Program-made: the position numbers and the translations under genes
Part shown: positions 45,771 through 64,000 of the stretch, in pieces
Position numbering within the stretch: position 1 is the stretch's first letter
Layout: each line of letters opens with the position of its first letter
The notes under the pieces: generated by a model
Told to the model about the DNA's origin: nothing
The model's input: only the letters and a program-made list of their open reading frames with translations
The model's database searches: none
Source: Chitinophaga pendula
GTDB taxonomy: Bacteria; Bacteroidota; Bacteroidia; Chitinophagales; Chitinophagaceae
Assembly (NCBI RefSeq): GCF_020386615.1
Contig: NZ_CP077769.1
Span: 6,311,501-6,375,500 of the forward strand
DNA: 64,000 nt
Reading direction: 5' to 3'

Positions 45771-48700
45771 TTAGTATTTATCTCTGATGATGGTAATGAA
45801 ACCTTTTACTTTTGGTAATCCGGGACCGAAGTCGAGGATATAATAATAAGTGCCTTCCTGCAGGGGTCTGCCGCTTAATGTTCCATCCCATTCATTCAGA
45901 TAACTCCGTTTGTTATAGATCAATCTTCCGACGCGATCAAATATCTTCAGCTCATTATTCGGATAGCTGTCAATGTTCTTTATCACAAAGCGATCATTGA
46001 TACCGTCTCCATTAGGCGTCAGTATATTCGTGGCGTCTACCTTATAATCATCTATTACTTCTATTGAGATCGTCTGAGATGCCGTACAGCCAGCATTGTT
46101 GGTTGCCGTAACGCGATAGGTCGCATTCGCTTTCGGACGGACTACCAACACAGCCTGGTTAGGATTATGCTGTATGTCTTCATTGGGATCCCATACATAA
46201 CTTACACCACCTGTTGCTGTCAGCCGTACCACATCGCCTTTGGATACTTTCAATCCCTTATCGCTGGTGATCACAGGCGTATTTATGCTGCTCACTGCAA
46301 TACGGAAAGTCCGCTGTATCTGGTCCACACCGCCATTAGCCGTGCCACCATTGTCCTTAGCTGTCACAGTAACGTTGGCAACACCTGATGCACCGGCCAC
46401 AAATCTGAACCGGAGTTCATTACCTGCGATCGTGAAAGAGGAGAAGAGGCCGTTGTTGTCATTGCTGGCAGTGAGGGTCACCGTCTGTCCTGCTTCAGGT
46501 CCTGCTGTTACAGTTGTGAATGCGATCCGCTCATCGTTGCCGGAAGCACAATAGCTCTTGTCTGTCACGACGTCAATGGTCGGCGCTTCATTTACATCTC
46601 TGATGCTGATCACGAACGTTTTCTCCAGGTACTCTCCATGCTGCGTAGTGGCTCTTACCCGGATACGGTAGCTGGATTGTTCTTCAAAGTTGAAGACCTT
46701 CAGACCTGTCAGCTTATCTCCTGCAATGCTGAAGCTGCTGTTATCATTACTACCGGTACCAGCTACCAGGGTGTAAGTGAATGTTGTTCCTGGTTCGTCA
46801 GCCGTAGCAGTCAATGTACCTACTGTGATATTGAGCAGGTTATTCTCTGCCACGAGCAGGTTGCTGAGCTGGATATCCAACGGAGGTTCCGGCATGTCGT
46901 TGAGGTTGATCTTCACTGTCTGTACAGCACTTTGATTCACCCCATCGCTTACCCTCACTGAAATTGTCAGACTGCTATTCACTTCATAATTCAGGTCGCC
47001 CGCATCATTTACCTTGATCACATTGCTCGCCGGATCCATGATGAACGCAGGTACTCCATCTCCATCCGCATCAACGTTAGTTGTAATAGTCCATTGTTGC
47101 AGTGTACCGGAAGAACCTGGATCATTAGCATCAACAGCTCCTACAGTCGTTCCTGCAGCACTGTTCTCATTGACACTAAATACTTGGTTGGTGGTGATCA
47201 CTGGCGGTACTGCATCTACCAGTACACCGGTAGTGGCTCCCATTCCTGTTAATACAAGCGTGGCATTATTACCGGCTGCATCTTTAATGGTAGCAGTGTT
47301 AAGAGAAATATTAGTGGCCGCAGCGATACCATCTCTGTCCAGATCACCGGCGGCTATTGTATAACTGAATGTAAGTGTGTTAGTGCCCGCACCGGCAGAG
47401 AGTGCAAAGTTTTTGATACTGCTGCCCATCGTTACCGAAATGAATGGTGTACCTCCCGCGATCGTTACGGCCTCAGAATAATGTACTACAAAGTTGAGTA
47501 CTTCACCAGCTTTCCAAAGTTTATTAGCAGGAATATCAACACTGGTCACTGCTGGTGCTACTGCATCTACGAGAACTGCGGTCGTTGGTGCCACGTTTTG
47601 TAAGGCGAGGTGAAGGTTATTTCCTGCCGCATCTTGTATAGTGGCGCCATTCAATTGCAATCCGCTTACATTAATGCCGTCTGTATCCAGGTCACCACTA
47701 ACAACAGTATAGCGGAACTGCATCGCCGTTGCCGGAGCTCCGGGTACATAAACTGCCTGTACGTTACTGCTGCCGATCTGTAATGTCAGCGTGGGTGAAC
47801 CGCCGGCAGTATTTACGGTAACCACTTCGGAAGTATTTACCGTGAATTGCAATACTTGTCCGGTAATATAAGTACCGTTCGCCGGCACTGCCACCGAGGC
47901 GATGGTCGGAACAATACCGTCGATCACCAGTGCCTTGTTCGCACCGAGTGATCCGGCGGCTCCTGGAGCTGCCAGCGTCAGCGCCGCATTTAGTCCTGCC
48001 GCACTCTTGATGCTACCACCATTGAGTTGAAGGGCCGTAGTAGCAGTGTAATCGAGATCTGTAGACTGATCTCCGCTTTGTACGGTATAACTAAATGTAA
48101 GCGTACTACTACCAGCACCACTCACATAATCGGCGTTACGATCTGTTGCGCCCGTTTCCAGTTGTACCTGTGGTGTACCTGTTACCAGCACTGGCATATT
48201 AAATGTTACAGTGACGGGTATTACATCTCCGAGTTTATAAGTACCGTTACCTGCTGTAGAAGATACCGCTGTAATGATCGGGAACGTCGGTTGTACATTG
48301 ATGCTGAGTATCTTTTCATCTGTTTGTGCTCCTCCTGCACCAGTGTTACCCTGATCATCAGCAGTCACTTTAATAGTAGCCGCACCGTAATAGTTTGCCG
48401 GAGGTATAAAGGTGAGTCCATTTAGCGCGGTGTTCACACTTGATAAGCTACCGGTAAACGTCATGGTCACATCACCAAGTCCATCCCCCGTACTGAAGCT
48501 CAATCCCGAAGTATTACCTAATGTCAGTGAACCGTTGGTCGCTGTCAATGTTATCTTCAGAACGCCTCCATTCAGATCAACATCGCTGATGCTGATCTTG
48601 TCAGCACCATTCAATACCAGGGCATTATTCATATCGACTGTCTGCGCAGCAGGTATGGTTATTACCGGCGCATCATTCACCGCGGTGATGTTGGCGTTGA

Positions 48701-51700
48701 AGACCAGCTGAGCAAACAGGTTGCCGCCGCTGCCGGTATTACCATTGTCATCAATCCTTACGGTCAATGATCTCGGAGTAACAGTACTATTCAACGGAGT
48801 GGTGTACGTTACCCCTCCAGCAGCAATGAACGTATTGATGTCGGTCAATGTCCCTTCCAGCGTCAGGGTAGCGCTGCCTGAATTATTGACGGTGACACCA
48901 CTACCACTGTTGGCAGCGAATGTTCCTCCACCGGCAGCAACAATAAAGCTAACCTTCACAATACCGGTACCCGCATCTACATCACTGAATGCCAACGGTC
49001 TTATTGCGGTCGGCACATCTTCCTGTACATTAAATGGTATCGGATTGCTGGAAATGCTTGGTACATCATTTACCGCTGCTATCTGCAACGTTACCGGCAC
49101 AGGCACCGCCTGCAGCGCTCCTCCCGCTCCGGTATGACCATTATCCGTCGCGGTCAGGGTTAATATAACATCGCCGTTCAAGTGGTTGGCCGGCATATAG
49201 GTGATATTATTACCGGCAATAAACGTATTGATATTGGCAACGGTTCCCAGCAGGGAGATTGTCGCGGTACCGTTACCGGTCACAGTTACTCCACCACCAC
49301 TGGTGGCAGTCAGATTACCGCTGGCAGCAGGCAGTGTAAATGTCATAGTAACGCTGCCACTTCCGGCATCCTCATCAGATAAGGTCATGCCGCTGATCGC
49401 TTTGCTAACATCTTCCGTTACAGCGATCGGTCCTGTACCGGCGATCACCGGTGCATCATTCATTGCTACCAATGTCAATACAACCGTAGTAGTTGCCTCC
49501 TCGCTGGTGGGGGACGGCCCGCCCGGATCGGCACCGGTATACCCGTTATCGTTAATATTGACAGACAAGTTTACATTACCTGTCGCATTAACTACTGGCG
49601 TATATTTCAGAGATCCTGCTGAGATAAAGCTATTGATAGCCGTAATAGTACCATTCAGTACCACCGTATTGGTGCCGCTACCGTTCACAGTTACTCCGCC
49701 ACCATCTGCGGCCGTCAGCGTACCTGCTGCTGCAAAAGTCGCCTTAACAACACCTGTTCCGGCATCAACATCTGCAAAGCTGATTCCGCTGATCGCTGTC
49801 TCAGTATCTTCATCCACATTAATCGTGGCTCCCGCCGTAATAGAGGGTGTATCATTTATCGCATTTATATTAATGGTAAATGTTTTCTGGTCTTGTTTAG
49901 CACCTCCCGTACCAGTATTACCCTGGTCATCAAACGTAACCGTAATTGTGATCGTCCCGTTAAAGTTGGCAGCAGGTGTAAAGGCCACTTTACCGGCAAG
50001 CAGATAACTATTCAGACCGGCCAGTGTTCCGCTGATCTGTATGTCATTGGTATTGTTGCCGGATACAATAGTAATACCTGCCTGGGGCGTTGCGAAGAAC
50101 GCTCCGCCGGAAGACTGCAGATGCAATAGGCCAGTACCCGCATTGATATCCTCATCTGCGATAGAAATATTGTTGATCTGTACGGCATTATCTTCATTAC
50201 CGGACAAGCTCGCTGGTGCGATCGTTAATACAGGTGCATCATTCACCTCGTCTACCACTAGTGTCACAGGGTCAGTATCTGTCAGACTACCACCTGTACC
50301 TGTATTACCATTGTCATTGATAGACACCGTCAACACCACATTACCTGCATTCGCTGTGGTAAAGGTCACTTTACCGCCGGAGATAAAGGTGTTGATAGTA
50401 CCAATAGTACCGCTCAGCGTCAGCGCAGTGCTGGTACCGCCTACCGTCACACCACTACCACTGGTCGCGGCCAGCGTACCCGTTGGTACACGCAGCGTTA
50501 CCGTAACCACTCCTGTGCCGGCGTCTACATCAGAGAAGCTGATACCTGTTAATACGGACGCCTGCTCTTCCGTCACTTGAATCGTAGCAGGAACATTATT
50601 TACAGGTGCATCATTCACCGCCGCAATAGTATAGTTGAGGGTAGCCGTAGCTGTCTTCGAACCGCCCGTACCAGTATTACCCTGGTCATCTACTGTCACG
50701 GTAACAGTAACGGCCTGCACATCATCTTGTGCTGTTGTATAAGATACAATACCTCCGCTAATGCCTGCATTAATGGCCGTTAGCGTACCGGTCAGTACCA
50801 GTGTACCACTACCGTTACCGGTTACTGTCACACCGGCAATAGCAGATGCTGACAGCCTGCCGCTGGATGCAGACAAGGTCAGTTTCACAGCGCCGGTGCC
50901 CGCATCTTCATCAGAGATCACGATATCATCTACCACCTTCGCAATATCTTCCTGGGCGGTCCTCGCAGTAGTGACAATAGCCAGCGTAGGCGCATCGTTC
51001 GCTGCTGCTACAACCAGGGTCACTAGGTCGGTATCTGTCAAGCTACCTCCCGTACCCGTATTACCATTATCATTGATGGACACCGTCAGGGTTACGTTAC
51101 CTGGATCTGCAGTGGTAAAGGTCACGTTACCGCCACCGATAAACGTGTTGATATTCGCAATAGAACCAGTCAGTATCAGCGCAGTGCTGGTACCGCCTAC
51201 AGTCACACCGCCACTGCTAGTCGCGGCCAGCGTACCCGTTGGTACACGCAGTGTTACTGTAACAGCGGCTGTGCCAGCATCTACATCGGAGAAGCCGATA
51301 CCTGTCAATGCAGTGACCGCATCTTCCGCTACATTAATAGTAGCAGGAACATTATTTACAGGTGCATCATTCACCGCCGCAATAGTATAGTTGAGGGTAG
51401 CCGTAGCTGTCTTCGAACCGCCCGTACCAGTATTACCCTGGTCATCTACTGTCACGGTAACAGTAACGGCCTGTACATCATCTTGTGCTGTTGTATAAGA
51501 TACAATACCTCCGCTAATGCCTGCGTTAATGGCCGTCAGCGTACCGGTCAGTACCAGCGTACCACTACCATTACCGGTTGCTGTCACACCGGCGATAGCA
51601 GATGCTGACAGTGTACCGCTGGATGCAGACAAGGTCAGTTTCACAGCGCCGGCTCCCGCATCTTCATCAGAGATAACAATATCATTTACTACCTTGGCAA

Positions 51701-54700
51701 TATCTTCCTGGGCGGTCCTCGCAGTGGTAACAATAGCCAGCGAAGGCGCATCGTTTACAGCCGCAACACGCAGCGTCACAGGGTCAGAGTCGGTTAATGC
51801 ACCTCCCGTACCGGTATTACCTTCATCACTGATCAGCACCGTCAGGACAACATCACTGCCAACAGTAGTAAGGAAGGTTACATTAGAAGCTGCTATAAAC
51901 GCATTGATAGCTGCGATCGATCCTGTCAGTGTCAGCGCGGTCGCTGTACCTCCAACAGTCACACCTGCACCGGCGGTGGCTGCCAACGCACCTGATGGTA
52001 CGCTTAGCGTCACTTTTACCGCCGCACTACCTGCATCTACATCGGAGAAGCTAATGCCCGTCAACGCAGACACCTGGTCTTCCGTCACGGATATATTAAC
52101 CGGCAGATGATTTACCGGCGCATCGTTCACCGCAGTAATGGTATAGTTGAGCGTAGCCGTTGCTGTCTTCGCCCCGCCGGTACCTGTATTACCCTGGTCA
52201 TCTATCGTTACGGTGATCGCAACCGGCAGTATATCATCCTGAGCTGTTTTATAAGAAATATTACCCCCGGTGATACCAGCATTGATAGCGGTTAACGTTC
52301 CTGTCAGTACTAAAGTTCCGGTATTATTACCTGTTACTGCTACACCGGCGATGACAGTGGCAGACAGGGTACCGCTGGATGCAGCCAACGTCAGTTTTAC
52401 ATTTCCGCTGCCCGCATCTTCATCAGAGATCACAATATCACTCACGGCTGTCGCTACGTCTTCCTGTGCGGCTCTGGCAGTGGTAACAATAGCCAACGCA
52501 GGCGCATCATTTACTGCAGTAACACTCAGCGTCACGGGATCAGAGTCGGTTAATGCACCTCCCGTACCAGTATTACCTTCATCACTGATCAGCACAGTCA
52601 GGATAACGTCGCTGCCAACCGTAGTAAGGAAGGTTACATTGGAGGCTGCTATAAAAGCATTGATATCTGTAATGCTACCAGTCAGTGTCAGCGCTGTTGC
52701 AGTACCGCCTACGGTCACACCACTACCGGTGGTCGCCGCCAGCGTACCGGAAGGTACACTCAACGTCACCTTCACCGGCGCATTACCAGCATCTATATCT
52801 GAAAAACTGATCCCTGCCAACGCCGTCGCTGCATCTTCCGTTACCGGGATACTGATAGGCACGTTATTTACCGGCGCATCATTTATCGCATTGATCGTCA
52901 ATGGTATCAGATCCAGATCTGTCTGCACGCCCCCGGTACCTGTATGCCCACCGTCCTGATTCCTTACACTGATCGATAACGTATTACCGTTAAAGTTAAC
53001 CGCTGGAGTAAATTTCACATTCCCTGCCAGCATAAAGGCATTCAGCGCAGCATAAGTACCTGCGATAGTGATGCCGGTATTGGTACCATCCGTATACGGA
53101 GCGACGGTTACACCCGCTCCGGTCGTTTGGAATGTACCGCTACCATTAGGTACAAAGAAATCAGAAGAAACGACAGCGCCATCCTGGTCCACATCGGTGA
53201 ACTGTATGCCTGTCAGTGTCAGCTGAGTATCTTCATTAAATATATATCCCGTAGGCACTGTATTTACTGGCGCATCATTTACCGCCGTCACCGCACAGCT
53301 AACACTCGCTACAGTGCTTGTACCTCCATCACCGTCATTCACCGTAAAAGTAATAGTGCGTGTATTTGCCGTTGGATTTTCTGTAGTATGTACGAACGTG
53401 ATCGCACGAAGCAATGCCGTGGCAGCAGCCGGAGTAGCATTGACAGTGGTAAAGGAAACTACCAGTGGAGCAGCGGAACCGTCTCCCGTGAAAGTACCGA
53501 TCAGGTTGCCATTATAATTGATGTTGCTGCCACTGATCGTAATCAGTCCTATATTACCTACTGCGAGTTTATCACCGGTTTCTTTATTGGTAGTAATAGT
53601 AACCGTTACATTCCCTCCGATGAAATCAGGAGAGTCACCATCCGTCACCGTCGCATTATTAGCAGCATCAAGTACCGTGGCGGTAGCGTTTTCCTGGTAA
53701 CTTACCATATCGCCATTCAGATTAACAACAGTAGGCGCAGTATTAGTTCTGGTCGTGAAGTTAAATGTTACGATATCATCGATACCTAGGAATGCAATAT
53801 TTGACGGCGCAGGCAACCTGAAGGTTGCCGGATCAAATAATATAGAATATCCAACGCCATATGCCAGGTTACTTGGCGGATCAATCGTCCAGGTAGTAGC
53901 TGGTGCCGCGCCAGCTGTCGTTACGCTGCCGCTGCTTACATCGATAGTCTGAATAGTCGCGTTATCGGAGGTACGTATAATATGGATATTGCCCGCTCCC
54001 TTGTTAACCGCTTTATTGAACGTGATAGTTATATTCCCGGTAGGATCTACGTTCACCGCATCATCCGCCGGTGTACTGGAAGTAATATAGGGAGGCTCCG
54101 CTATCTGCTGATAGAATCGCCCGTCTATATTATTCCTGGGTTGCCAGATGTCCATATCTGTGTCCCCATCAAAATCAGCTACGACAAAAGTATTATCATC
54201 ATAAAAAGTAAATCCTGCAAATATGGAGGCACTCGTATTAACAATGTTATAGTTAACGTTACCTCCGGTACTCGTATTGAGAGCTACATTATAGGGAGTG
54301 CCTGGAGCACCTGTCTGATATAGGATGTCAACATCGCCGTCGCTGTCAAAATCTCCCAGTACAGCATCCCCTATATCGCTGAGTTCCGGAAACGCACTAT
54401 TGGATGCCGCAGCAAAGCTGCTTCCATTATTCTTAAAGAACCATCCTTTCCTGTTAGCTACCGTAGGATCGTCTATATCGCCACCAAACCAGATATCGAT
54501 ATTACCATCTTTATCAAAGTCCGCAGCAAAAACATTGCCCCCCTGGTGCGTAGGGAAAGTAAGTCCCGCAAATGGTGAAGAAGCCAGCGGTATCTCCGTA
54601 AACGCGAGCGGAGCACCTTGTACCCCATTGTTTTTAAGATAATGATAGGCTCCCACGGTAGGGAATCCGTCCTGGAACAGGATATCGGGGAAACCGTCTC

Positions 54701-55217
54701 CCGAAAAGTCAGCAATGGTCACCCGCAGCTGCGATCCTATCGATGGAAAGACGCCGGCCGTAGCAACACCGGTAAACACACCACCATCATTACGGAAATA
54801 AGAACCGGTCCCCAGATTGGTCGTTAACCAAAGATCGATATCGCCGTCATGATCAAAGTCCGCCACATAGTCGTTAAACGCAGTCAGGTTAGGAAAACCA
54901 GCTGCAACATTCCGGAAAGGCGAAATAGGATCACCGATCGCCACAGTAGTAAAATTGGCATTAGCATCACACCTGGAATAGGTAAGTGCAGAGCCGTTTC
55001 CACCGGTCTGTGATAGGATGTCGGCATCACCGTCACCGTCAAAATCAGCTACCACGACCCTCCCCGGAAACTGTGGTTGCGGAAAGTTCTTGGCTTGACC
55101 ATTGCCTGCCGAAAAAGCCGTATAGGTCTGGGCGCGCAGGCTGACAGGAAGGGTAATAAGGAGCGTTGCCAGGACCATAGTCGCTCGGCAACATTTTCCA
55201 ATGTAGAGTTTCACCAT
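45771..55217 (-). CDS. Giant cadherin-like adhesin with T9SS type B sorting domain
   Basis: A 3148-aa secreted surface protein. Signal peptide to about 29; FG-GAP/VCBS-type Asp-rich repeats (DFDGDGDADI and similar) to about 370; a Big_5-like domain at about 375-495; then about 14 tandem cadherin-like units of about 126 aa from about 500 to 2290, each opening with a VNDAP-type motif; three Ig-like (Big) units to about 2660; two or more cadherin-like units; and a C-terminal gliding-motility-type region (ILTPNGDGINDRF..., about 3060-3148) that marks type IX secretion (type B). It resembles SprB-type gliding/adhesion proteins. It shares an operon with PorP/SprF. Acidic DxDxD loops suggest calcium binding. 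Confidence 0.93.
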   Translation of the reverse strand: MVKLYIGKCCRATMVLATLLITLPVSLRAQTYTAFSAGNGQAKNFPQPQFPGRVVVADFDGDGDADILSQTGGNGSALTYSRCDANANFTTVAIGDPISPFRNVAAGFPNLTAFNDYVADFDHDGDIDLWLTTNLGTGSYFRNDGGVFTGVATAGVFPSIGSQLRVTIADFSGDGFPDILFQDGFPTVGAYHYLKNNGVQGAPLAFTEIPLASSPFAGLTFPTHQGGNVFAADFDKDGNIDIWFGGDIDDPTVANRKGWFFKNNGSSFAAASNSAFPELSDIGDAVLGDFDSDGDVDILYQTGAPGTPYNVALNTSTGGNVNYNIVNTSASIFAGFTFYDDNTFVVADFDGDTDMDIWQPRNNIDGRFYQQIAEPPYITSSTPADDAVNVDPTGNITITFNKAVNKGAGNIHIIRTSDNATIQTIDVSSGSVTTAGAAPATTWTIDPPSNLAYGVGYSILFDPATFRLPAPSNIAFLGIDDIVTFNFTTRTNTAPTVVNLNGDMVSYQENATATVLDAANNATVTDGDSPDFIGGNVTVTITTNKETGDKLAVGNIGLITISGSNINYNGNLIGTFTGDGSAAPLVVSFTTVNATPAAATALLRAITFVHTTENPTANTRTITFTVNDGDGGTSTVASVSCAVTAVNDAPVNTVPTGYIFNEDTQLTLTGIQFTDVDQDGAVVSSDFFVPNGSGTFQTTGAGVTVAPYTDGTNTGITIAGTYAALNAFMLAGNVKFTPAVNFNGNTLSISVRNQDGGHTGTGGVQTDLDLIPLTINAINDAPVNNVPISIPVTEDAATALAGISFSDIDAGNAPVKVTLSVPSGTLAATTGSGVTVGGTATALTLTGSITDINAFIAASNVTFLTTVGSDVILTVLISDEGNTGTGGALTDSDPVTLSVTAVNDAPALAIVTTARAAQEDVATAVSDIVISDEDAGSGNVKLTLAASSGTLSATVIAGVAVTGNNTGTLVLTGTLTAINAGITGGNISYKTAQDDILPVAITVTIDDQGNTGTGGAKTATATLNYTITAVNDAPVNHLPVNISVTEDQVSALTGISFSDVDAGSAAVKVTLSVPSGALAATAGAGVTVGGTATALTLTGSIAAINAFIAASNVTFLTTVGSDVVLTVLISDEGNTGTGGALTDSDPVTLRVAAVNDAPSLAIVTTARTAQEDIAKVVNDIVISDEDAGAGAVKLTLSASSGTLSASAIAGVTATGNGSGTLVLTGTLTAINAGISGGIVSYTTAQDDVQAVTVTVTVDDQGNTGTGGSKTATATLNYTIAAVNDAPVNNVPATINVAEDAVTALTGIGFSDVDAGTAAVTVTLRVPTGTLAATSSGGVTVGGTSTALILTGSIANINTFIGGGNVTFTTADPGNVTLTVSINDNGNTGTGGSLTDTDLVTLVVAAANDAPTLAIVTTARTAQEDIAKVVDDIVISDEDAGTGAVKLTLSASSGRLSASAIAGVTVTGNGSGTLVLTGTLTAINAGISGGIVSYTTAQDDVQAVTVTVTVDDQGNTGTGGSKTATATLNYTIAAVNDAPVNNVPATIQVTEEQASVLTGISFSDVDAGTGVVTVTLRVPTGTLAATSGSGVTVGGTSTALTLSGTIGTINTFISGGKVTFTTANAGNVVLTVSINDNGNTGTGGSLTDTDPVTLVVDEVNDAPVLTIAPASLSGNEDNAVQINNISIADEDINAGTGLLHLQSSGGAFFATPQAGITIVSGNNTNDIQISGTLAGLNSYLLAGKVAFTPAANFNGTITITVTFDDQGNTGTGGAKQDQKTFTININAINDTPSITAGATINVDEDTETAISGISFADVDAGTGVVKATFAAAGTLTAADGGGVTVNGSGTNTVVLNGTITAINSFISAGSLKYTPVVNATGNVNLSVNINDNGYTGADPGGPSPTSEEATTTVVLTLVAMNDAPVIAGTGPIAVTEDVSKAISGMTLSDEDAGSGSVTMTFTLPAASGNLTATSGGGVTVTGNGTATISLLGTVANINTFIAGNNITYMPANHLNGDVILTLTATDNGHTGAGGALQAVPVPVTLQIAAVNDVPSISSNPIPFNVQEDVPTAIRPLAFSDVDAGTGIVKVSFIVAAGGGTFAANSGSGVTVNNSGSATLTLEGTLTDINTFIAAGGVTYTTPLNSTVTPRSLTVRIDDNGNTGSGGNLFAQLVFNANITAVNDAPVITIPAAQTVDMNNALVLNGADKISISDVDLNGGVLKITLTATNGSLTLGNTSGLSFSTGDGLGDVTMTFTGSLSSVNTALNGLTFIPPANYYGAATIKVTADDQGNTGAGGAQTDEKILSINVQPTFPIITAVSSTAGNGTYKLGDVIPVTVTFNMPVLVTGTPQVQLETGATDRNADYVSGAGSSTLTFSYTVQSGDQSTDLDYTATTALQLNGGSIKSAAGLNAALTLAAPGAAGSLGANKALVIDGIVPTIASVAVPANGTYITGQVLQFTVNTSEVVTVNTAGGSPTLTLQIGSSNVQAVYVPGAPATAMQFRYTVVSGDLDTDGINVSGLQLNGATIQDAAGNNLHLALQNVAPTTAVLVDAVAPAVTSVDIPANKLWKAGEVLNFVVHYSEAVTIAGGTPFISVTMGSSIKNFALSAGAGTNTLTFSYTIAAGDLDRDGIAAATNISLNTATIKDAAGNNATLVLTGMGATTGVLVDAVPPVITTNQVFSVNENSAAGTTVGAVDANDPGSSGTLQQWTITTNVDADGDGVPAFIMDPASNVIKVNDAGDLNYEVNSSLTISVRVSDGVNQSAVQTVKINLNDMPEPPLDIQLSNLLVAENNLLNITVGTLTATADEPGTTFTYTLVAGTGSNDNSSFSIAGDKLTGLKVFNFEEQSSYRIRVRATTQHGEYLEKTFVISIRDVNEAPTIDVVTDKSYCASGNDERIAFTTVTAGPEAGQTVTLTASNDNNGLFSSFTIAGNELRFRFVAGASGVANVTVTAKDNGGTANGGVDQIQRTFRIAVSSINTPVITSDKGLKVSKGDVVRLTATGGVSYVWDPNEDIQHNPNQAVLVVRPKANATYRVTATNNAGCTASQTISIEVIDDYKVDATNILTPNGDGINDRFVIKNIDSYPNNELKIFDRVGRLIYNKRSYLNEWDGTLSGRPLQEGTYYYILDFGPGLPKVKGFITIIRDKY
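50584..51756 (-). repeat. Near-identical 756-bp tandem repeats inside the giant adhesin
   Basis: The segment 50584-51000 recurs at 51340-51756 with only scattered base changes over more than 400 bp; by eye it is far more similar than the other unit pairs. The offset is 756 bp, or 252 codons, equal to two cadherin-like units (an A-B pair). The units between about 50.2 and 52.9 kb alternate A and B types. Confidence 0.8.
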
Positions 55218-56463: not shown

Positions 56464-57027
56464 TTAGTTCCTGGATGGATAGATCCCCTCCAGTGCTATA
56501 ATATAGTTCATAGCAATATAAGGCTGCATAATGGAAAACGGCTGACTGCCACCAGCAGGCTGAATAACAGTACCGGCAGTAGTGGGTACCAACGCGGTAT
56601 TAGGCGTCTTGTTATTATAACCATATACCTCGTTACCTCCTACTGAATCCAGGAACGTAGCCAGGGTGTTAGTACCCGCAGCCGCAGTACCTGTAGTACC
56701 CGATTCATTGGAAACAGAAATAGTTACCACACCAACGTGTGTGTGCATCGGCATCTGAGCAATGGTCAGCGTAATGTTGGGAGTACCGCCGATCTGACCT
56801 AGTTCATAACCTGGCAGGCCTGGTCCCTGACCATAACCAATAGGCGCACGGCCCCGAAAATCAGGTAAAGCAAATGTCGTTTGACCGTTACCGCCATAAG
56901 TCGTCCCCAATAAGGAAAACAAAGCAGTGTTCTGTGCAATTGATATAATCTGGCCCCAGCAGGTTGCCCAGCCTCTCGGCGCAAAGTTGCCGCCGAACAT
57001 ACAAATTAGCGCAATAAAAGGTTCCAT
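56464..57027 (-). CDS. Tail-collar-domain (microcystin-dependent-protein-like) protein
   Basis: A 187-aa protein with the phage tail collar fold: MEPFIALICMFGGNFAPRGW at the N-terminus, CWGQIISIAQNTALFSLLGT, YGGNGQTTFALPDFRGRAPI, then IAQMPMHTHVG, and the terminal PFSIMQPYIAMNYIIAL. The same layout is found in Bacteroidota and cyanobacterial MdpB-like proteins outside phages; no other phage gene is close. There is no signal peptide. It is the first gene of a minus-strand series that continues with the binding-fold protein, the giant adhesin and PorP/SprF. The function is unknown. Confidence 0.82.
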   Translation of the reverse strand: MEPFIALICMFGGNFAPRGWATCWGQIISIAQNTALFSLLGTTYGGNGQTTFALPDFRGRAPIGYGQGPGLPGYELGQIGGTPNITLTIAQMPMHTHVGVVTISVSNESGTTGTAAAGTNTLATFLDSVGGNEVYGYNNKTPNTALVPTTAGTVIQPAGGSQPFSIMQPYIAMNYIIALEGIYPSRN

Positions 57028-57631
57028 TCCTTCAAGTGTTTAGGTTAGGGTGAGAGTTATGTGACTAAATTTCTGGTTGACGGTGCAAAGAAGATACAGG
57101 GGCCAAAACATTCACAATCATTTAAATAGGGATGAATCAGTTGGTAACTATATAGGCTGCATACAACCCGCTCCGTTGGAATTCGGACCTAAAGTAAATA
57201 TTAATCCAATTGTCATGTAACACCACCGCATAGGCGGCAGGATTTCTTGTGTAACTGGCAGGATTTAGCACCTTTTCGCATTTCCCCCCTTTTGTTACTG
57301 TATTCCGTCTCTATTAAGTACATGGCCTCCAATGACCTTTGCTGCTTTTTTTAATCCCCCGATGCTCCTCGGATGCCTTCATCGATATAGGTAACGGACT
57401 GACCGCCATCATCTACCTCACTTCCGTACCAACCTGCTTTATAGCTAAAAATCCCCGCCCCTGGGGAATATCCATCAATACCTAAAACGTATACGCTGAT
57501 AACCAACCGTTTACCTATATTCTCGCCGGGGGCTCTACCTCCCCGGCATTTTTTTTATTTTTTCTAAAACGCTGCTGACATACCACTGTCACAACCCCGT
57601 AGTTTCTTTGTATTACAAAACACAACCTACT
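57028..57631. other. Long intergenic region with a decayed-looking frame and a terminator
   Basis: A 604-base stretch without a confident gene. On the minus strand, about 57350-57540, a frame lacking an ATG encodes an ordered-looking segment (VYVLGIDGYSPGAGIFSYKA and following, ending GIRGASGD before a stop); it may be a gene remnant. A terminator-type hairpin with a long T-run lies at 57524-57560 on the plus strand. GGCAGGATTT occurs twice near 57235-57265. Confidence 0.4.
57524..57560 (+). terminator. Orphan intrinsic terminator
   Basis: A GCCGGGG/CCCCGGC stem near 57525-57546 followed by ATTTTTTTTATTTTTT. No plus-strand gene ends before it, which suggests either an unannotated transcript (small RNA) or a lost gene. 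Confidence 0.65.
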
Positions 57632-58153
57632 ATGATACAGACATCCAAACAAACAAGAACACTCGCTACCCTGGTAAAAGATTATGCTGCCTACAACGCT
57701 TGGGCAAACAAAACCCTGATCAACTGGCTGCGCACTAAACCCGAAGAACTGATGGATGCCTCCGTCGCCTCCAGCTTCCACTCCATCAACAAAACACTCC
57801 AACACTACCTGGAAGCACAACAATACTGGCTGGCTATCATCAAAGATGAAGCGCCCGAACTCAGCACCTATCAGCGTACCGCTCCCATCCCCACCGCCGC
57901 ACTGTTTGACCTCGTTGTAGAACAATCCGCCGCCTTCTCCGATTTCGTTGCCACCCTCAACGACGAAGACCTCCAGGAATCCGTGCTGATCGTCACCGAA
58001 TACTTCCAGTCCAACCGCGATAAATTCGAATATATCCAGCACGTAATGAACCACAGCACCTATCACCGCGGACAGATCGTGACCATGGGCCGCCATATCG
58101 GTCTCACCGATGCCCCCATGACAGATTATAATTTCTTCTTGCTGATGGCATAA
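57632..58153 (+). CDS. DinB family protein
   Basis: A 173-aa four-helix-bundle protein of the DinB/YfiT metalloenzyme family. The metal-binding His pattern is visible: SSFHSINKTLQHY and the end HVMNHSTYHRGQIVTMGRHIG. Members act in thiol transfer (bacillithiol or mycothiol-dependent) or have unknown roles in DNA damage response. ATG 57632 is chosen; the frame's TTG at 57608 adds eight residues. It is followed 54 bases later by a winged-helix gene on the same strand. Confidence 0.88.
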   Translation: MIQTSKQTRTLATLVKDYAAYNAWANKTLINWLRTKPEELMDASVASSFHSINKTLQHYLEAQQYWLAIIKDEAPELSTYQRTAPIPTAALFDLVVEQSAAFSDFVATLNDEDLQESVLIVTEYFQSNRDKFEYIQHVMNHSTYHRGQIVTMGRHIGLTDAPMTDYNFFLLMA

Positions 58154-58207: not shown

Positions 58208-59296
58208 ATGATGAACAATTCCAGCTTCCTGAAATACCGGCTTTTACAACAGCATATCTCCCTTCCTGACTTCGATACCCCGGCACAGGCAGCCGCCTGG
58301 CTGGGCGCCACCCAGGCTCAGGACTATTGGAGCGGTAAATGGTCGCTGGGCCTCCGCACCCGCCATAGCACCCAGGAACAGGTAGAAACCGCGGTCGCCG
58401 ACCGGCAGATCGTACGCACCTGGGCCATGAGAGGGACCTTACACCTCGTCGCCACAGAAGATGTACACTGGCTGCTACAGCTACTCCAACCCAGACTCAC
58501 ACAACAACAGGCGCCCCTCCTCAATGGCAGGGAGCTCACGGAGAAGATCGTCAGCAAAAGCCAGCAGCTCATTATCCGTGCCCTGCAAGACACACAGGAA
58601 CTCTCCCGCGAAGAGATCAAAACATTGCTCGAAAAGAATAAGATCCGCACAGATGAACAACGCCTGGGATTACTATTGGTCCGCGCTGCTACCGATAAAG
58701 TAATATGCCTCGGTTGCCGCCGTGGAAAAGAATATACCTATACACTCCTGGATAAGTGGATACCTGCTGCCTCCCCCATCCCCCGCGAAGAAGCACTAAG
58801 CCGCCTGGCGCTCCGCTACTTCATCAGCCGCGGCCCAGCCACCATACAGGATTTCGCAGGATGGTCAGGGCTCACCATCACCGAGTCCAAAACAGGCCTG
58901 CAAATCGTACAGGCGAAACTCCACCGGGAAGTGATCCATGGACAAACCTACTGGATGGCACCCCCTACTCCCGAACTGAAAACCGCCGGCAACAACGTAT
59001 ACCTCCTGCCCGGTTTCGACGAATATGTACTCGGCTATAAAGACCGCAGCCACTTCGTTACACCGGAACAGTTTAAAAGGATCGTACCCGGCCGCAACGG
59101 TATCTTCCAACCCACCATCGTCCTCAACGGAAAAGTAGCAGGCACCTGGAAACGAACCTACAAAAAAGACACCGTCACCATCGAGATCAACCCCTTCACC
59201 GCCTTCAGCCCCGCACAGCTTAAAAGCATCACCACCGCCGCCCGGCGTTATGGACAATTTGAAGGCCTCACCCCCATATTGCCTTTTTTGAAATAG
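58208..59296 (+). CDS. Winged-helix DNA-binding domain protein (HTH_42 family)
   Basis: A 362-aa protein of the HTH_42/YcaQ-type family. The typical motif is RQIVRTWAMRGTLHLVATED, and further matches are LPGFDEYVLGYKDRSHFV and the FQPTIVLNGKVAGTWKR block. Some members (AlkX, YcaQ) are DNA glycosylases for alkylated or crosslinked DNA; others are annotated only as winged-helix proteins. Its pairing with DinB in the same orientation is consistent with DNA damage functions, but unproven. ATG 58208 or 58211 could be the start. Confidence 0.85.
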   Translation: MMNNSSFLKYRLLQQHISLPDFDTPAQAAAWLGATQAQDYWSGKWSLGLRTRHSTQEQVETAVADRQIVRTWAMRGTLHLVATEDVHWLLQLLQPRLTQQQAPLLNGRELTEKIVSKSQQLIIRALQDTQELSREEIKTLLEKNKIRTDEQRLGLLLVRAATDKVICLGCRRGKEYTYTLLDKWIPAASPIPREEALSRLALRYFISRGPATIQDFAGWSGLTITESKTGLQIVQAKLHREVIHGQTYWMAPPTPELKTAGNNVYLLPGFDEYVLGYKDRSHFVTPEQFKRIVPGRNGIFQPTIVLNGKVAGTWKRTYKKDTVTIEINPFTAFSPAQLKSITTAARRYGQFEGLTPILPFLK

Positions 59297-59543: not shown

Positions 59544-61016
59544 ATGTCGGTATCTACGCTTTCTGGCTTATTCGAGAATTCCCCGTCCGTGCAGATCATC
59601 CGTATGCGTAATGCGCATTGGGTACTGCCATTCCTGCATAGAGTGTTCAAGACAGAAAATGTATTTTCTATCCCGGAACCCGCACTCATCTCCCTGCTGG
59701 CAGAAGAGCTGCGTATGCACGTCGATGGTATGGAAGACCTCGAAGAAGCCCGCATAGAATATGGAGAAGATGAAGAGTCCAGGGCCCGTAAATATCTGCA
59801 GAACTGGGTACAACGCCGCTTGCTGCAGGACTTTCCCGATGCCAATGCCGAAACCCAATATCAGCTGAGCGCACATGCGGAGAAGTCATTCCAATGGCTA
59901 CAAACCCTGGAAAAACGACAATTCGTCGGCACTGAAAGCCGTTTCCGCTTCCTCTTCCAAACCCTCCGCGAAATGAGCGAATACGCCCAGGACGACCGCA
60001 GTACCCGCCTCACAGAACTCAAGAACAAACGCGCCGAAATAGACAAAGAGATCAAAAAACTTGAACTCGGCGGCGCCGTCACCGTATACACCAATGCGCA
60101 AGTACAGGAACGGCTGGAATGGTTCACCCGCCTCTGTTATGAACTACTAAGCGACTTCCGCGAAGTAGAAGACAACTTCAAACAGATCCATCGCAACATC
60201 GTAGAGCAACATACCAAAGCAGAAGTCAATAAAGGCGCTATCGTCGGCTACGCCTTCGAAGCATACAACGCCCTCCGCAACAGCGACCAGGGAAAAAGTT
60301 TCTACGCCTTCTGGGACTTCCTCGTATCCAGGGCCGGCCAGGAAGACTGGCGCTCCCTGACAGAAAATCTCGTGCAACTGCTCGAAGACCGTGGTATCGA
60401 AATGGATCGCAGCTTCCTCCAGAACACAAAATCACTCCTGCTACAATACGGCCGCAACGTTTACGATGCCAACGATAAAATGGCGGAAAAACTCAGCCGC
60501 ATCATCACCGAAAAAGAAATCGCCCGCCACCGCCGCCTGCGCAAACAGATCGGCAATATCAAAGAACTCGTTCTCCAAATGATCGATGATGAAGAACCGA
60601 CTTGTGGTATCAGCGTCACAGAACCCGCCTCCATACGCCTGAACATGGAACGCCGGCTTAACCTCACTCCCAAAAGAGTAGTGACCTCCTTAAAACAACC
60701 CACCAACGCGGAAGAACACATCGCCGACGCAGAACGTTTCGGTAGAATGATGAACATCTCTCATATCGACAAAAAACACCTCTGGCAACAGGTAGAAAAT
60801 ATCTTACAGGAAAAACAAACCGCCACCTTAAGAGAAGTAATAGAAACCGTAGGACTTACACATGGCCTGGCTGAAATAGTCGCCTACTTCAGCTTCCTGA
60901 AAGAGAAAAATGGCCGCGTACAGTCCGTCGAAAAAATTACCGAACTGATACCTCTCAACGAAGAACAAACCACCTTCGCAGAAGTGCCATACCTCCTGTT
61001 CAGCAAACAGGCATAA
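59544..61016 (+). CDS. jetA: Wadjet defence protein JetA (DUF3375, MksF-like kleisin)
   Basis: A 490-aa protein of the DUF3375 family. In the Wadjet system, JetA is the kleisin-like subunit (MksF/MukF type) that, with JetB and the SMC-like JetC, recognises and extrudes small circular DNA so that JetD can cut it. Features: RMRNAHWVLPFLHRVFK near the N-terminus, charged helical regions (RLTELKNKRAEIDKEIKKLE) and a C-terminal winged-helix-like end (ATLREVIETVGLTHGLAEIV). It is the first gene of the jetABC operon, followed 39 bases later by jetB. ATG at 59544. Confidence 0.9.
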   Translation: MSVSTLSGLFENSPSVQIIRMRNAHWVLPFLHRVFKTENVFSIPEPALISLLAEELRMHVDGMEDLEEARIEYGEDEESRARKYLQNWVQRRLLQDFPDANAETQYQLSAHAEKSFQWLQTLEKRQFVGTESRFRFLFQTLREMSEYAQDDRSTRLTELKNKRAEIDKEIKKLELGGAVTVYTNAQVQERLEWFTRLCYELLSDFREVEDNFKQIHRNIVEQHTKAEVNKGAIVGYAFEAYNALRNSDQGKSFYAFWDFLVSRAGQEDWRSLTENLVQLLEDRGIEMDRSFLQNTKSLLLQYGRNVYDANDKMAEKLSRIITEKEIARHRRLRKQIGNIKELVLQMIDDEEPTCGISVTEPASIRLNMERRLNLTPKRVVTSLKQPTNAEEHIADAERFGRMMNISHIDKKHLWQQVENILQEKQTATLREVIETVGLTHGLAEIVAYFSFLKEKNGRVQSVEKITELIPLNEEQTTFAEVPYLLFSKQA

Positions 61017-61055
61017 TTATCGCTAATCACTCGTTTTAAAATTTTCGTTCTAATA

Positions 61056-61640
61056 GTGGAGATATTACCTTACACATCTGTATTCATCAAACTGCTGAAA
61101 GGGCCTGTCGAATATCTTGAAAAGACCTCCTGGGAGCAACTGCTGCAATACCAGGGCGAACTGACCCGATTCTTACAACAACTGGGATTGACCCTCATCC
61201 TCGATAAGGAAGATGGATACGCCTATCTCGAAACGGCTAAAACAGAAGAAGAAGAAAGCGTCGCCGGTTGGACCCGCCGTACCTCCCTCGGATACGACGA
61301 AAGCGTATTGCTCGTTCTCCTCCGCGATATGATGGCCGAATTCGAAGTAGGCGAAGTCACCAGCCGCGAACTGGTCAAAAAACGCCGCGAAATCAAAGAA
61401 TTTGCAGAACTCTTCTTCCGCGAAGATGCCAGCCGCGTCAAATTCATCAAAGAACTCGACCGCCTCATCGATAAAGTAGAAGAACTTGGTTTCATCGATA
61501 AGATCGAGCACCACGAAGTGCCCGACGAACAGAAATTCCGTATCAAAAAGATACTCAAAGCCAAAGTAGACAACGAAATTCTGGAAGACTTTAAACAACA
61601 ACTTACAGCACATGCAGCTCAACGTATTCAGCACGGATAG
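61056..61640 (+). CDS. jetB: Wadjet defence protein JetB (DUF4194, MksE-like)
   Basis: A 194-aa DUF4194 protein, the KITE/MksE-type subunit of the Wadjet complex. It starts at GTG 61056 (MEILPYTSVFIKLLKGPVEY). The region DKEDGYAYLETAKTEEEESV, SLGYDESVLLVLLRDMMAEF and the charged C-terminal half (FIDKIEHHEVPDEQKFRIKK) fit the family. It overlaps jetC by 29 bases, so translation is probably coupled. Confidence 0.88.
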   Translation: MEILPYTSVFIKLLKGPVEYLEKTSWEQLLQYQGELTRFLQQLGLTLILDKEDGYAYLETAKTEEEESVAGWTRRTSLGYDESVLLVLLRDMMAEFEVGEVTSRELVKKRREIKEFAELFFREDASRVKFIKELDRLIDKVEELGFIDKIEHHEVPDEQKFRIKKILKAKVDNEILEDFKQQLTAHAAQRIQHG

Positions 61641-64000
61641 CGATAAATCCGGTTTCCGCCTGCAATACATGGAAATATACAATTGGGGCACCTTTGATGG
61701 ACATGTATGGCAGATAAAACCAGAAGGGGAAACATCCCTGCTCACAGGAGCCAACGGTAGTGGCAAAACCACCTACGTCGATGCACTCCTCACCCTGATG
61801 GTGCCGGAAAGAAAACACAGATTTTATAACCAGTCCTCCGGTAGCGAGAAAAAAGGAGACCGTACAGAAGAAAGTTATGTACTGGGTGGTTTTGGTAGCT
61901 TACATACCGAAAACAGTACCTCCGGCAAAACACTCTACCTCCGCGAAAACCGCGAAGAAGCATATAGCATCCTCCTCGCCTGTTTCGCCAACGAAGTCGG
62001 CCAAGAAGTCACCTTGTTCCAGGTACGCTACTTCGGTGGCAGCGATATGCGCCGCATATACGCCATCGCACACAAAGCCCTGCACATCGAAGCCGACTTC
62101 ACCCCCTTCGACCTCAATGGCGCCTGGCGCCGCCGTATAGACCAGCTATACAACAAAAGCAGCCGCCGCCAGGTAGAATGGTTCGACTCCGCCGGCCGAT
62201 ATGCACAACGCATGGTAGAAGTGCTGGGCATGCAAAGCCTGCAAGCACTCAGCCTCTTCAACCAGACCGTAGGTATCAAAGTCCTCGGCAACCTCGACGA
62301 GTTCATCCGCATGCATATGCTCGAACCGCGTAACATGGAAGAACAGTTCCAGGACCTCAAAAAACACCTCGCTACCCTCCTCGATGCCCAACGCAATATC
62401 GAAAAAGCAGAAGCCCAGATCGCCCTGCTGCTACCCCTCCAGGATCACTACGCCTCCTATCAGCAACAAGCAGCACAACTCGCACTGGCCAAACAGGAAG
62501 TAGAAATAGGCACCATCTGGAACAGCTACACCAAATACCAACTACTCGGAGAAGCCCTCACCAATGGCCAGAAAGCCCTCGAAGAACTCAAACTACGCCT
62601 CCAACAAGCCCGCGAACAAGTAGCGCGACTCCAGGACGAAGAACGCCAGATCAAAAACCAAATAGATCAAAATAAAGCAGGACAACGCCTCCAGGCCCTT
62701 ACCAAAGACCTGGAAGATGCCCGCCAGAAACTGTCCGATACACAAATCGCCCTCGACCAGTTCACCGAATGGTGCACCAACATCCACCTCGAAGAAACCA
62801 ACGCCTCCGATGATGCTGCCTACAGCCGCATCAAAAAAGAAGCAGACAAAGCCAATAAAAGACTCGCCTTGGAAACCCGCAATAACGAGGAAGACTGGTA
62901 CGACGCCCGCCAACAGCTCAAAAAAGCACAAGATGGCATCGTCACCGTGGAAAACGACCTCAACATGCTCCTCCAAAGCCGTAATAATATACCTGGCCAC
63001 CTGATCCACCTCCGTAAAGATATCTGCCAGGCCCTCAAACTGGAAACCTCCGAACTCCCGTTTGCAGGAGAACTCATGCAGGTAAGACCCGAAGACCTGG
63101 AATGGCAACCCGTACTGGAAAAACTACTCCATGGCTTCGCTCTCCGCCTGCTCGTTCCAGATAAACATTATAAAAAAGTAACCCGATACGTAAATACCAC
63201 CAACCTGCAAGCCAGACTAGTATACTACAACGTCGGCGAACTAGGCATGCACCAGTATGCAGAAGATGATACCGTTTGGCATAAACTGGACTTCCACCCA
63301 GATCACAAACTAAGCGACTGGGTAAGCCAACAGGTAATACGCATGTTCGAACACAGCTGCGTGGAAAGTGACAAAGAACTGGCCCGCTACGACAACGCCA
63401 TCACCATACATGGCCTTATCAAAAACAGAGACCGCCATGAAAAAGATGACCGCCCCGATCGTAATGATCCCAGCCGATACGTACTGGGCTGGAACAACGA
63501 AAAAAAGAAAGAAGCCCTCACCACTAAAAGGCTTCGCCTGATAGCAGAAGCAGAAAGCGCCAAAGAAGCACTCGACAGAGCCGATAATAAAAAGAAAAGA
63601 TTAGGCAAACAACTCGTCTCCGTTCAACATATCATCGATCATAACAGCTTCTCCCTGATCAATATCGCTGGCGTACAAAGAGCCATCCGTAATATAGAAG
63701 AGCAGATCAACGCCCTCAAACAAAGCAGCAACCAGCTGTCCGAACTGACCGGCCAGCTCACCGCCGTTCAGGAACAGATCATGCAGCAGGAAACCGACAG
63801 AGATGCCTTACTCACAAAAATCGGTATCAGCGAAAACAACCTGCAACAGGTAGAAACACAACAACAACACCTGCAGCCCCTCCTGCAGCAACTCACAGAA
63901 GAAGATACCCTGCAACTGCTCGACTTCCAGCGCAGACACGACTCCGTACTGCTTAATATCGGCCTCAACAACATCGACCTGGTATACCAGCAGATCAAAA
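61612..64000 (+). CDS. jetC: Wadjet defence protein JetC, SMC-like ATPase (partial, N-terminal 796 codons)
   Basis: The frame is open from ATG 61612 to the right edge; I read 796 codons and no stop. It has an ATPase head starting MQLNVFSTDSDKSGFRLQY, with Walker A GANGSGKT at residues 46-53, then a long coiled coil rich in Gln, Glu and Lys. From about residue 484 a segment FAGELMQVRPEDLEWQPVLE and the following LLHGFALRLLVP resembles the COG4913 hinge-adjacent core. The signature motif and Walker B, near the C-terminus in this family, lie beyond the window. The start overlaps jetB by 29 bases. Confidence 0.92.
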   Translation, partial: MQLNVFSTDSDKSGFRLQYMEIYNWGTFDGHVWQIKPEGETSLLTGANGSGKTTYVDALLTLMVPERKHRFYNQSSGSEKKGDRTEESYVLGGFGSLHTENSTSGKTLYLRENREEAYSILLACFANEVGQEVTLFQVRYFGGSDMRRIYAIAHKALHIEADFTPFDLNGAWRRRIDQLYNKSSRRQVEWFDSAGRYAQRMVEVLGMQSLQALSLFNQTVGIKVLGNLDEFIRMHMLEPRNMEEQFQDLKKHLATLLDAQRNIEKAEAQIALLLPLQDHYASYQQQAAQLALAKQEVEIGTIWNSYTKYQLLGEALTNGQKALEELKLRLQQAREQVARLQDEERQIKNQIDQNKAGQRLQALTKDLEDARQKLSDTQIALDQFTEWCTNIHLEETNASDDAAYSRIKKEADKANKRLALETRNNEEDWYDARQQLKKAQDGIVTVENDLNMLLQSRNNIPGHLIHLRKDICQALKLETSELPFAGELMQVRPEDLEWQPVLEKLLHGFALRLLVPDKHYKKVTRYVNTTNLQARLVYYNVGELGMHQYAEDDTVWHKLDFHPDHKLSDWVSQQVIRMFEHSCVESDKELARYDNAITIHGLIKNRDRHEKDDRPDRNDPSRYVLGWNNEKKKEALTTKRLRLIAEAESAKEALDRADNKKKRLGKQLVSVQHIIDHNSFSLINIAGVQRAIRNIEEQINALKQSSNQLSELTGQLTAVQEQIMQQETDRDALLTKIGISENNLQQVETQQQHLQPLLQQLTEEDTLQLLDFQRRHDSVLLNIGLNNIDLVYQQIK

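What the first reader, a model, noticed from the sequence alone, without database searches (positions are those of the whole stretch)
59544..64000. Wadjet (JetABCD) anti-plasmid system at the window edge
The three genes match DUF3375, DUF4194 and a COG4913-type SMC-like ATPase in the order of Wadjet operons, with translational overlap between jetB and jetC. The known system restricts small circular DNA by loop extrusion and cleavage. jetC is cut by the window end, so the nuclease subunit JetD (DUF3322/DUF2220) cannot be checked. DinB and winged-helix repair-type genes lie just upstream, which may mean a wider DNA-processing island.
Basis: partly seen in the sequence, partly recalled or inferred. 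Interest (0 to 1): 0.75.

Follow-up and report, generated by a model that had tools for sequence, protein, structure and literature searches.

The report
Wadjet DNA motor without its nuclease
This bacterium carries an intact three-gene DNA-looping motor of the Wadjet anti-plasmid kind but lacks the DNA-cutting fourth gene, and related bacteria have dropped that cutter many times while keeping the motor, which suggests the motor does a job of its own.

Summary
The three genes are real: jetA (DUF3375), jetB (DUF4194) and jetC (SMC ATPase), with a 29-nt jetB/jetC overlap. Beyond the window edge jetC is complete (1133 aa, ATPase motifs) and is followed by a convergent rpiA, not by jetD. No JetD is found in the complete 7.66-Mb genome. 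It is not an isolated accident. In the window's genus 61 of 79 genomes have JetA but only 12 of 79 have a JetD_C match. On a tree of 141 distinct JetC proteins the jetD state changes at least 18 times. In one pair sharing a site, jetD is cleanly deleted. JetD-less jetA/B/C are under strong purifying selection, dN/dS 0-0.08, and two D-less lineages sit at conserved chromosomal sites in 28 and 20-21 loci. The best reading is a nuclease-free, MksBEF-like loop-extruding SMC derived from Wadjet I. Nuclease-less Wadjet-group complexes are known (MukBEF, P. aeruginosa MksBEF), so this is a new variant. What the motor does without JetD is untested.

The parts
59544..61016 (+). jetA / mksF-like kleisin subunit, 490 aa
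   Evidence: PF11855 DUF3375 319 bits; PADLOC JetA1 594 bits; PDB JetA 8dk1/8q72 at E 8e-12 and 9e-11
61056..61640 (+). jetB / mksE-like KITE subunit, 194 aa, GTG start
   Evidence: PF13835 DUF4194 125 bits, PF21980 MksE 40 bits; alone no PDB match, but profile A3 matches PDB JetB 8dk1/8as8 at E 2.6e-9 and 1.6e-8; overlaps jetC by 29 nt
61612..64000 (+). jetC / mksB-like SMC ATPase, first 796 codons in the window; the gene continues to L002:10013 (equivalent to 65013), 1133 aa in all, complete
   Evidence: PADLOC JetC1 1113 bits; PDB JetC 8dk2/8as8 at E 1e-52 and 1e-47; Walker A at residue 46, LSGGEK at 1017, VDESF at 1055
57608..58153 (+). DinB-family gene upstream; neighbour, not shown to be part of the system
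   Evidence: PF05163 76.5 bits; no relative at E<=1e-20 in the other fetched loci
58208..59296 (+). AlkZ-like DNA glycosylase gene upstream; neighbour, not shown to be part of the system
   Evidence: PF06224 235 bits; no relative at E<=1e-20 in the other fetched loci

Best explanation
The window holds a complete, constrained type-I Wadjet motor (JetABC: kleisin, KITE and SMC) that has lost its nuclease JetD. It probably works as an MksBEF-like loop extruder: JetC dimers, bridged by JetA and bound by JetB, load on DNA and extrude loops using ATP, with no cleavage step, and so help organise or segregate the chromosome beside the canonical Smc-ScpAB. SHOWN by sequence: three intact genes, ATPase motifs, no JetD match in the genome, purifying selection on the same type of operon without jetD, repeated changes of jetD state, and conserved chromosomal sites in two D-less lineages. 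INFERRED: loop extrusion (from solved and assayed homologues) and the chromosomal role (by analogy with P. aeruginosa MksBEF and MukBEF). For the window's own copy, jetD was lost somewhere on the branch since the split from its nearest relative (L199, 82% JetC identity, jetD present), before or after the operon reached its present site; jetABC lies next to rpiA in the window only, among the 30 rpiA loci examined.
For: jetC is complete and rpiA follows. JetD is absent from the complete genome (where the control C. glutamicum rings). JetA occurs in 61 of 79 genus genomes but JetD_C in 12 of 79. There are at least 18 state changes on the JetC tree with 7 unreadable rows left uncounted; in group tables that keep those rows as a class of their own, starred branches force 17 (D+) and 21 (D-). 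An IQ-TREE check on a chosen 49-row subset needs 15, of which 12 are forced. JetC and JetD distances are congruent (r = 0.91, n = 17, 0 of 2000 permutations as high), which favours an ancestral jetD that was lost over one repeatedly gained. A clean in-place deletion is seen: L046 resumes homology 45 nt after the jetC stop, L079 1199 nt after. dN/dS in 18 close pairs (15 purely D-, 3 with one unreadable member): jetA 0.013-0.061, jetB 0-0.048, jetC 0.018-0.081. The window copy breaks only 1 of 153, 1 of 60 and 1 of 342 near-invariant columns in JetA, B and C, against 4, 1 and 2 for its D+ sister. ScpA is present in the own genome. No neighbour gene is shared by the D- lineages generally.
Against: No function was measured. 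The operon is not universal (18 of 79 genus genomes have no JetA match), unlike an essential condensin. JetABC cores of D+ and D- operons are alike, with no clear relaxation at any would-be JetD-docking surface, which also fits a nuclease supplied in trans. Some genomes have jetD away from jetABC (G119 about 73 kb away, G206 on another contig, G023 on another contig of a fragmented assembly). Four genus genomes (G202, G223, G241, G251) carry both a D+ and a D- operon, and a fifth (G195) a D- operon plus a jetC-jetD pair without recognisable jetA. The window's own lineage is a single genome, so persistence without JetD is shown for its relatives, not for it. The tree alone cannot tell loss from gain.
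Confidence: 0.52

Rival explanations
1. JetABC without JetD still acts against extrachromosomal circles, not by cutting but by extruding or entrapping them so that they are silenced or segregate badly (as proposed for Smc5/6 and viral DNA).
For: The motor is constrained about as strongly as in D+ systems, and the distribution is wide but not universal, as for a defence trait. The Smc5/6 precedent was read in PMC10586767 passages.
Against: Two D-less lineages keep one chromosomal site over 28 and 20-21 loci, more like a resident gene than a roaming defence gene; nothing here measures plasmids.
Confidence: 0.2
2. An unrecognised nuclease elsewhere in the genome, or an orphan JetD, serves JetABC in trans, so plasmid cleavage is intact.
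For: Orphan jetD genes exist: G119 (L084) has one about 73 kb from its jetABC, and G206 (L232) has one with no jetABC beside it. Four JetC rows have jetD 764-1611 nt away from jetC.
Against: No JetD_C and no JetD-profile match in the window's complete genome; 49 of 61 JetA-bearing genus genomes have no JetD_C match; no neighbour gene shared by the D- lineages generally.
Confidence: 0.17
3. The operon is a broken Wadjet on its way to loss.
For: The closest relative (L199) still has jetD. A multiply interrupted jetABC exists in Niabella defluvii (L167).
Against: Full-length ORFs and intact motifs; low dN/dS in D- pairs; the window is not enriched in breaks at near-invariant sites; D-less lineages have diversified over many species.
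Confidence: 0.08

Closest known systems
Wadjet type I (JetABCD / MksBEFG / EptABCD)
   Same: JetA, JetB and JetC families, gene order, overlapping jetB/jetC, SMC ATPase motifs; matches to the solved JetA, JetB and JetC chains 8dk1-8dk3 and 8as8/8q72. Solved cores are from P. aeruginosa PA14 and E. coli GF4-3 (passage); which entry is which is recalled
   Different: jetD, the nuclease that carries out plasmid cleavage, is absent from operon and genome. JetB is 194 aa against 249-250 aa in the solved forms, and the alignment offset suggests that their first 40 or so residues have no counterpart here; L199 JetB (D+) is also 194 aa
P. aeruginosa MksBEF (condensin without MksG)
   Same: Three-subunit, nuclease-free SMC complex; [quoted passage not shown]
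   Different: Not placed on one tree with it here; PADLOC scores these as JetA1/JetB1/JetC1; here the jetD state changes many times inside one bacterial family
MukBEF of Enterobacteria
   Different: Only a sub-threshold MukB N-terminal match (21 bits, cut-off 23); the host keeps ScpA. That MukBEF stands in for Smc-ScpAB in its hosts is recalled

Membership tests
Wadjet type I (JetABCD) | JetA (DUF3375) kleisin | tested here: met
   319 bits PF11855, 594 bits JetA1
Wadjet type I (JetABCD) | JetB (DUF4194) KITE | tested here: met
   125 bits PF13835, 170 bits JetB1; PDB JetB by profile, not by the single sequence
Wadjet type I (JetABCD) | JetC SMC ATPase with Walker A, signature and Walker B motifs | tested here: met
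   Complete 1133 aa, motifs at 46, 1017, 1055
Wadjet type I (JetABCD) | JetD Toprim nuclease (PF09983) in the operon or genome | tested here: not met
   rpiA follows jetC; 0 matches in the own genome with PF09983 and with a 15-row JetD profile at E<=1
Wadjet type I (JetABCD) | Cleaves small circular DNA | not testable with these tools
   Needs a bench assay
MksBEF/MukBEF-like nuclease-less SMC | SMC + kleisin + KITE operon without MksG/JetD | tested here: met
MksBEF/MukBEF-like nuclease-less SMC | Persists without nuclease under purifying selection | tested here: met
   For D- relatives, dN/dS 0-0.081 in 18 close pairs, 15 of them purely D-; for the window itself only 1 break each in near-invariant columns
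MksBEF/MukBEF-like nuclease-less SMC | Takes part in chromosome organisation or segregation | not testable with these tools
   Inferred by analogy only
MksBEF/MukBEF-like nuclease-less SMC | Phylogenetic clustering with P. aeruginosa MksB or MukB | not tested
   No MksB/MukB rows were put on the tree

The most novel reading that the evidence does not exclude
In type-I Wadjet the conserved, selected function is that of the JetABC motor itself, and the JetD nuclease is an optional, fast-evolving add-on that lineages shed. Chitinophagaceae have repeatedly turned mobile JetABCD defence into resident, nuclease-free chromosomal SMC complexes, giving many independent natural 'jetD deletions' in which the motor's own function can be read. 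Supporting numbers: jetD dN/dS is 0.10-0.14 in the six of ten D+ pairs where it could be measured, while jetC in those six is 0.03-0.04 in four, 0.098 in one and not measurable in one; and the jetD state changes many times.
Probability: 0.45. Interest if true: 0.75.

Novelty: new variant of a known kind. Interest (0 to 1): 0.55.

Why it matters
How a DNA-cutting SMC defence machine relates to chromosome-organising SMCs is an open question: a 2023 review suggests MukBEF and MksBEF arose from Wadjet (PMC10586767, passages). Here the step appears to have happened repeatedly within one bacterial family, with D+ and D- sister operons close enough to compare, one pair showing a clean jetD deletion at the same site. 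That makes 'what does the Wadjet motor do without its nuclease?' directly testable in cultured Chitinophaga. It also warns that counting JetA or JetC as 'Wadjet defence' overestimates plasmid restriction in this family.

Tried and rejected
1) JetD hidden beyond the edge, elsewhere, or as a remnant: rejected for the window. In 125 D- loci (some are the same place fetched twice) a tblastn of 46 JetDs gave one hit, E = 0.002, 46 aa, upstream and antisense, taken as chance; control 47 of 47 D+ loci. One search used PF11796, which is DUF3323, the wrong family, and rang in no control: it is not used as evidence. One search had no control genome.

2) A replacement fourth gene: neighbour clustering found mostly families shared within one lineage (synteny). 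Three cross between lineages: one of 113-173 aa in 18 loci, which by eye is a mixed bag of HxlR-like regulators in different positions and orientations, and families of about 294 and 216 aa in 10 and 7 loci, of which some are D+. None looks like an operon partner; none was pursued further.

3) Loss of JetD-docking residues in D- cores: entropy comparison over 80 rows showed only slightly higher variability in D- (JetA 0.235 against 0.216, JetB 0.223 against 0.213, JetC 0.264 against 0.246); no cluster was evident in the 15 top columns listed. The test is weak because effective sample sizes differ.

4) DinB/AlkZ as part of a wider island: no support.

5) Structure prediction and the search for homologous proteins were not run. 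PF11795 (DUF3322, number recalled) was not searched. SMC and ScpB were not searched, only ScpA.

6) A broad phylum sample (395 genomes) was dominated by one family (f18); there JetD usually accompanies JetA (46 of 59 JetA genomes over cut-off; 44 of 55 outside the window's family), so D-lessness is a speciality of the window's family and genus, not the rule. Several of the 13 exceptions are partial hits or low-completeness drafts.

7) The tree does not distinguish gain from loss; the loss reading rests on JetC-JetD congruence and conserved position. JetD distances saturate, and nearest neighbours by JetD and JetC differ for several rows. The 49-row subset was chosen around D+/D- borders, so its shuffles mean nothing.

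8) Motif patterns: the strict Walker A and LSGGEK patterns hit 91 and 93 of 94 D- JetC rows but only 31 and 21 of 40 D+ rows; I take this as natural variation between lineages and did not look further.
Full report
WHAT IS THERE. The three genes of the finding are real and correctly placed: jetA 59544-61016, jetB 61056-61640, jetC from 61612, all +, with a 29-nt jetB/jetC overlap. They match DUF3375, DUF4194/MksE and SMC/Rad50-type ATPase families, and the type-I Wadjet profiles of PADLOC at 594, 170 and 1113 bits. JetA and JetC match solved JetA and JetC chains directly. JetB alone matched none, but its family profile does (E 2.6e-9). The window lies in a complete 7.66-Mb, one-contig genome.

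THE MISSING PIECE. Reading past the edge, jetC is complete (1133 aa) with Walker A, LSGGEK and Walker B motifs. Eighty-four bases later comes rpiA on the other strand, then an MFS transporter. There is no jetD. PF09983 (JetD_C) finds nothing in the whole genome, while its control, Corynebacterium glutamicum, rings. A profile built from 15 JetD proteins of relatives also finds nothing at E <= 1, without a control. One search used the wrong family and is disregarded.

HOW COMMON THIS IS. In a sample of 195 genomes of the family, 42 have JetA and 23 have JetD_C; 22 of the 42 JetA genomes have both and 20 have JetA only, a few of these being fragmentary or cut at a contig end. In the genus, 61 of 79 genomes have JetA but only 12 have a JetD_C match, and two of those are weak (24 bits, partial): 49 of 61 JetA genomes have no match at all. 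In a phylum sample of 395, by contrast, 46 of 59 JetA genomes (over cut-off) also have JetD_C (that sample is dominated by one other family). Jet loci from the family and genus genomes and 79 named loci were read for gene order. Of 193 loci, 14 lacked a full-length JetC; the other 179 give 141 distinct JetC proteins, of which 94 have no jetD beside them, 40 do, and 7 cannot be judged. No jetD beside jetC is not always no jetD in the genome: G119, G206 and G023 have one elsewhere.

LOSS RATHER THAN GAIN, AND MANY TIMES. A FastTree of the 141 JetC proteins needs at least 18 changes of state (unreadable rows uncounted); in group tables that treat those rows as a class of their own, starred branches force 17 (D+) and 21 (D-). 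An IQ-TREE on 49 chosen rows needs 15, 12 of them forced. JetD and JetC distances are congruent (r = 0.91 in the window's clade, n = 17; r = 0.96 elsewhere, n = 22; 0 of 2000 permutations as high in each), and jetD overlaps jetC or starts within 33 nt of its end in 36 of 40 D+ rows. This favours one ancestral jetD lost repeatedly. In one sister pair, L046 (D-) and L079 (D+), JetC is very similar (dN 0.015) and the operons share a site: homology resumes 45 nt against 1199 nt after the jetC stop, i.e. jetD has been cleanly removed. In 125 D- loci no jetD remnant was found beyond one chance hit, while the same search found jetD in 47 of 47 D+ loci. All 39 full-length JetDs keep the three acidic positions E254, D298 and D300 in L199 numbering; that these are the Toprim metal ligands is recalled.

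THE WINDOW'S COPY. Its nearest relative is L199 (G204, same genus; JetC 82% identical), which has jetD 21 nt after jetC. DNA similarity between the two 20-kb loci covers the jetABC genes only: they sit at different places. An MFS gene lies beside rpiA in 27 of the 30 best rpiA loci (of 78 genomes with a match), the window's included, on either side of it, but jetABC lies within 1.5 kb of rpiA only in the window genome. So the operon was probably acquired horizontally, and jetD was lost before or after. The copy looks healthy: one break each in 153, 60 and 342 near-invariant columns of JetA, B and C, against 4, 1 and 2 in its D+ sister. Window against L199 dN/dS is 0.045, 0.036 and 0.076 with high dS, 1.6-2.9.

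THE MOTOR IS KEPT FOR SOMETHING. In 18 close pairs (15 purely D-, 3 with one unreadable member) dN/dS is 0.013-0.061 for jetA, 0-0.048 for jetB and 0.018-0.081 for jetC, similar to D+ pairs. In D+ pairs where it could be measured (six of ten) jetD has 0.10-0.14, above jetA, jetB and jetC of the same pairs wherever those could be measured; jetC is 0.03-0.04 in four of the six, 0.098 in one and unmeasurable in one. Two D-less lineages in the genus keep one place. One has a bestrophin-like gene upstream and cydAB among the next genes in 28 loci; the other shares its neighbours in 20-21 of 21 rows. The Niastella/Longitalea lineage has the same large neighbour in 8 loci. By contrast, seven D+ loci (six from another lineage, and L070) share a relaxase-type neighbour (Pfam Relaxase and T4SS coupling protein on L050, MobC/NikA-like on L060). 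This suggests mobile JetABCD and resident JetABC, though the other D+ loci lack this neighbour.

MECHANISM. Sequence homology to solved, assayed JetABC makes a dimeric, ATP-driven loop extruder the most likely machine (inference from the family). Without JetD there is no cleavage step. The own genome has ScpA, so canonical Smc-ScpAB is probably present (SMC and ScpB were not searched) and JetABC would be an accessory SMC. The closest functional model is P. [quoted passage not shown] Rivals are plasmid silencing without cutting, a nuclease in trans and decay; the last is the least likely.

WHAT IS KNOWN AND NEW. Nuclease-less members of the Wadjet group are in print (above), so the kind is known. 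Repeated jetD loss within Chitinophagaceae was not seen in the papers found. Searches were Wadjet+Chitinophaga (one paper, listing only), MksG+Bacteroidetes (none), Wadjet+domestication+nuclease+SMC (four listings) and (listings). Passages, not whole texts, were read of PMC10586767, PMC10123090, PMC10512200, PMC7617805 and PMC12647877.

Noticed in passing
L002:14796-16917 (about 5.8 kb beyond the window edge): An RtcB-family RNA ligase gene followed by an RF-1-domain (PrfH-like) gene, reminiscent of the RtcB-PrfH RNA/ribosome repair pair (that pairing is recalled), preceded by a 230-aa gene with no Pfam match.
   Followed up: no
L002:16960-19998: Large helicase with AAA_11/AAA_12, MTES_1575 REase and DUF3320 domains, cut by the end of the stretch.
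   Followed up: no
L050, L060, L069, L070, L071, L072, L078 (D+ loci): JetABCD operons with a shared neighbour that is a relaxase by Pfam in L050 (with a T4SS coupling protein; MobC/NikA-like in L060), hinting that some nuclease-bearing copies travel on mobilisable elements.
   Followed up: partly
L084:9465-10646 and L232:6347-7561: Orphan jetD genes with no jetABC beside them; the L084 one is about 73 kb from the D-less jetABC of the same genome.
   Followed up: partly
L081, L127, L149, L155: Close relatives in which jetD is still downstream but separated from jetC by 764-1611 nt, possibly an intermediate in uncoupling.
   Followed up: partly
L231:6977-11768 (G195): A jetC-jetD pair with only a 70-aa jetB piece and no recognisable jetA, in a genome that also has a D-less jetABC.
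   Followed up: no
L233:15-5468: Behind the weak JetD_C hit of G252: four consecutive genes (239, 219, 1057, 320 aa), the third starting with a Walker-A-like GANGVGKS; it looks like a diverged Wadjet-type operon (by eye only).
   Followed up: no
L167:7951-13395: jetABC of Niabella defluvii is broken into several frames, a decayed copy or sequencing error.
   Followed up: no
45771-55217 (-) and 56464-57027 (-): A 3148-aa repetitive protein (FG-GAP/cadherin-like repeats by eye) and, near it, a phage tail-collar-domain protein (PF07484).
   Followed up: no
JetB N-terminus, 61056 onward: JetB here is 194 aa against 249-250 aa in solved forms; the profile offset suggests about 40 extra N-terminal residues there. 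An IFDR motif at the JetB N-terminus is reported to contact JetD (PMC10586767 passage); none of the 20 aligned JetBs, D+ or D-, shows an extension of that size.
   Followed up: partly
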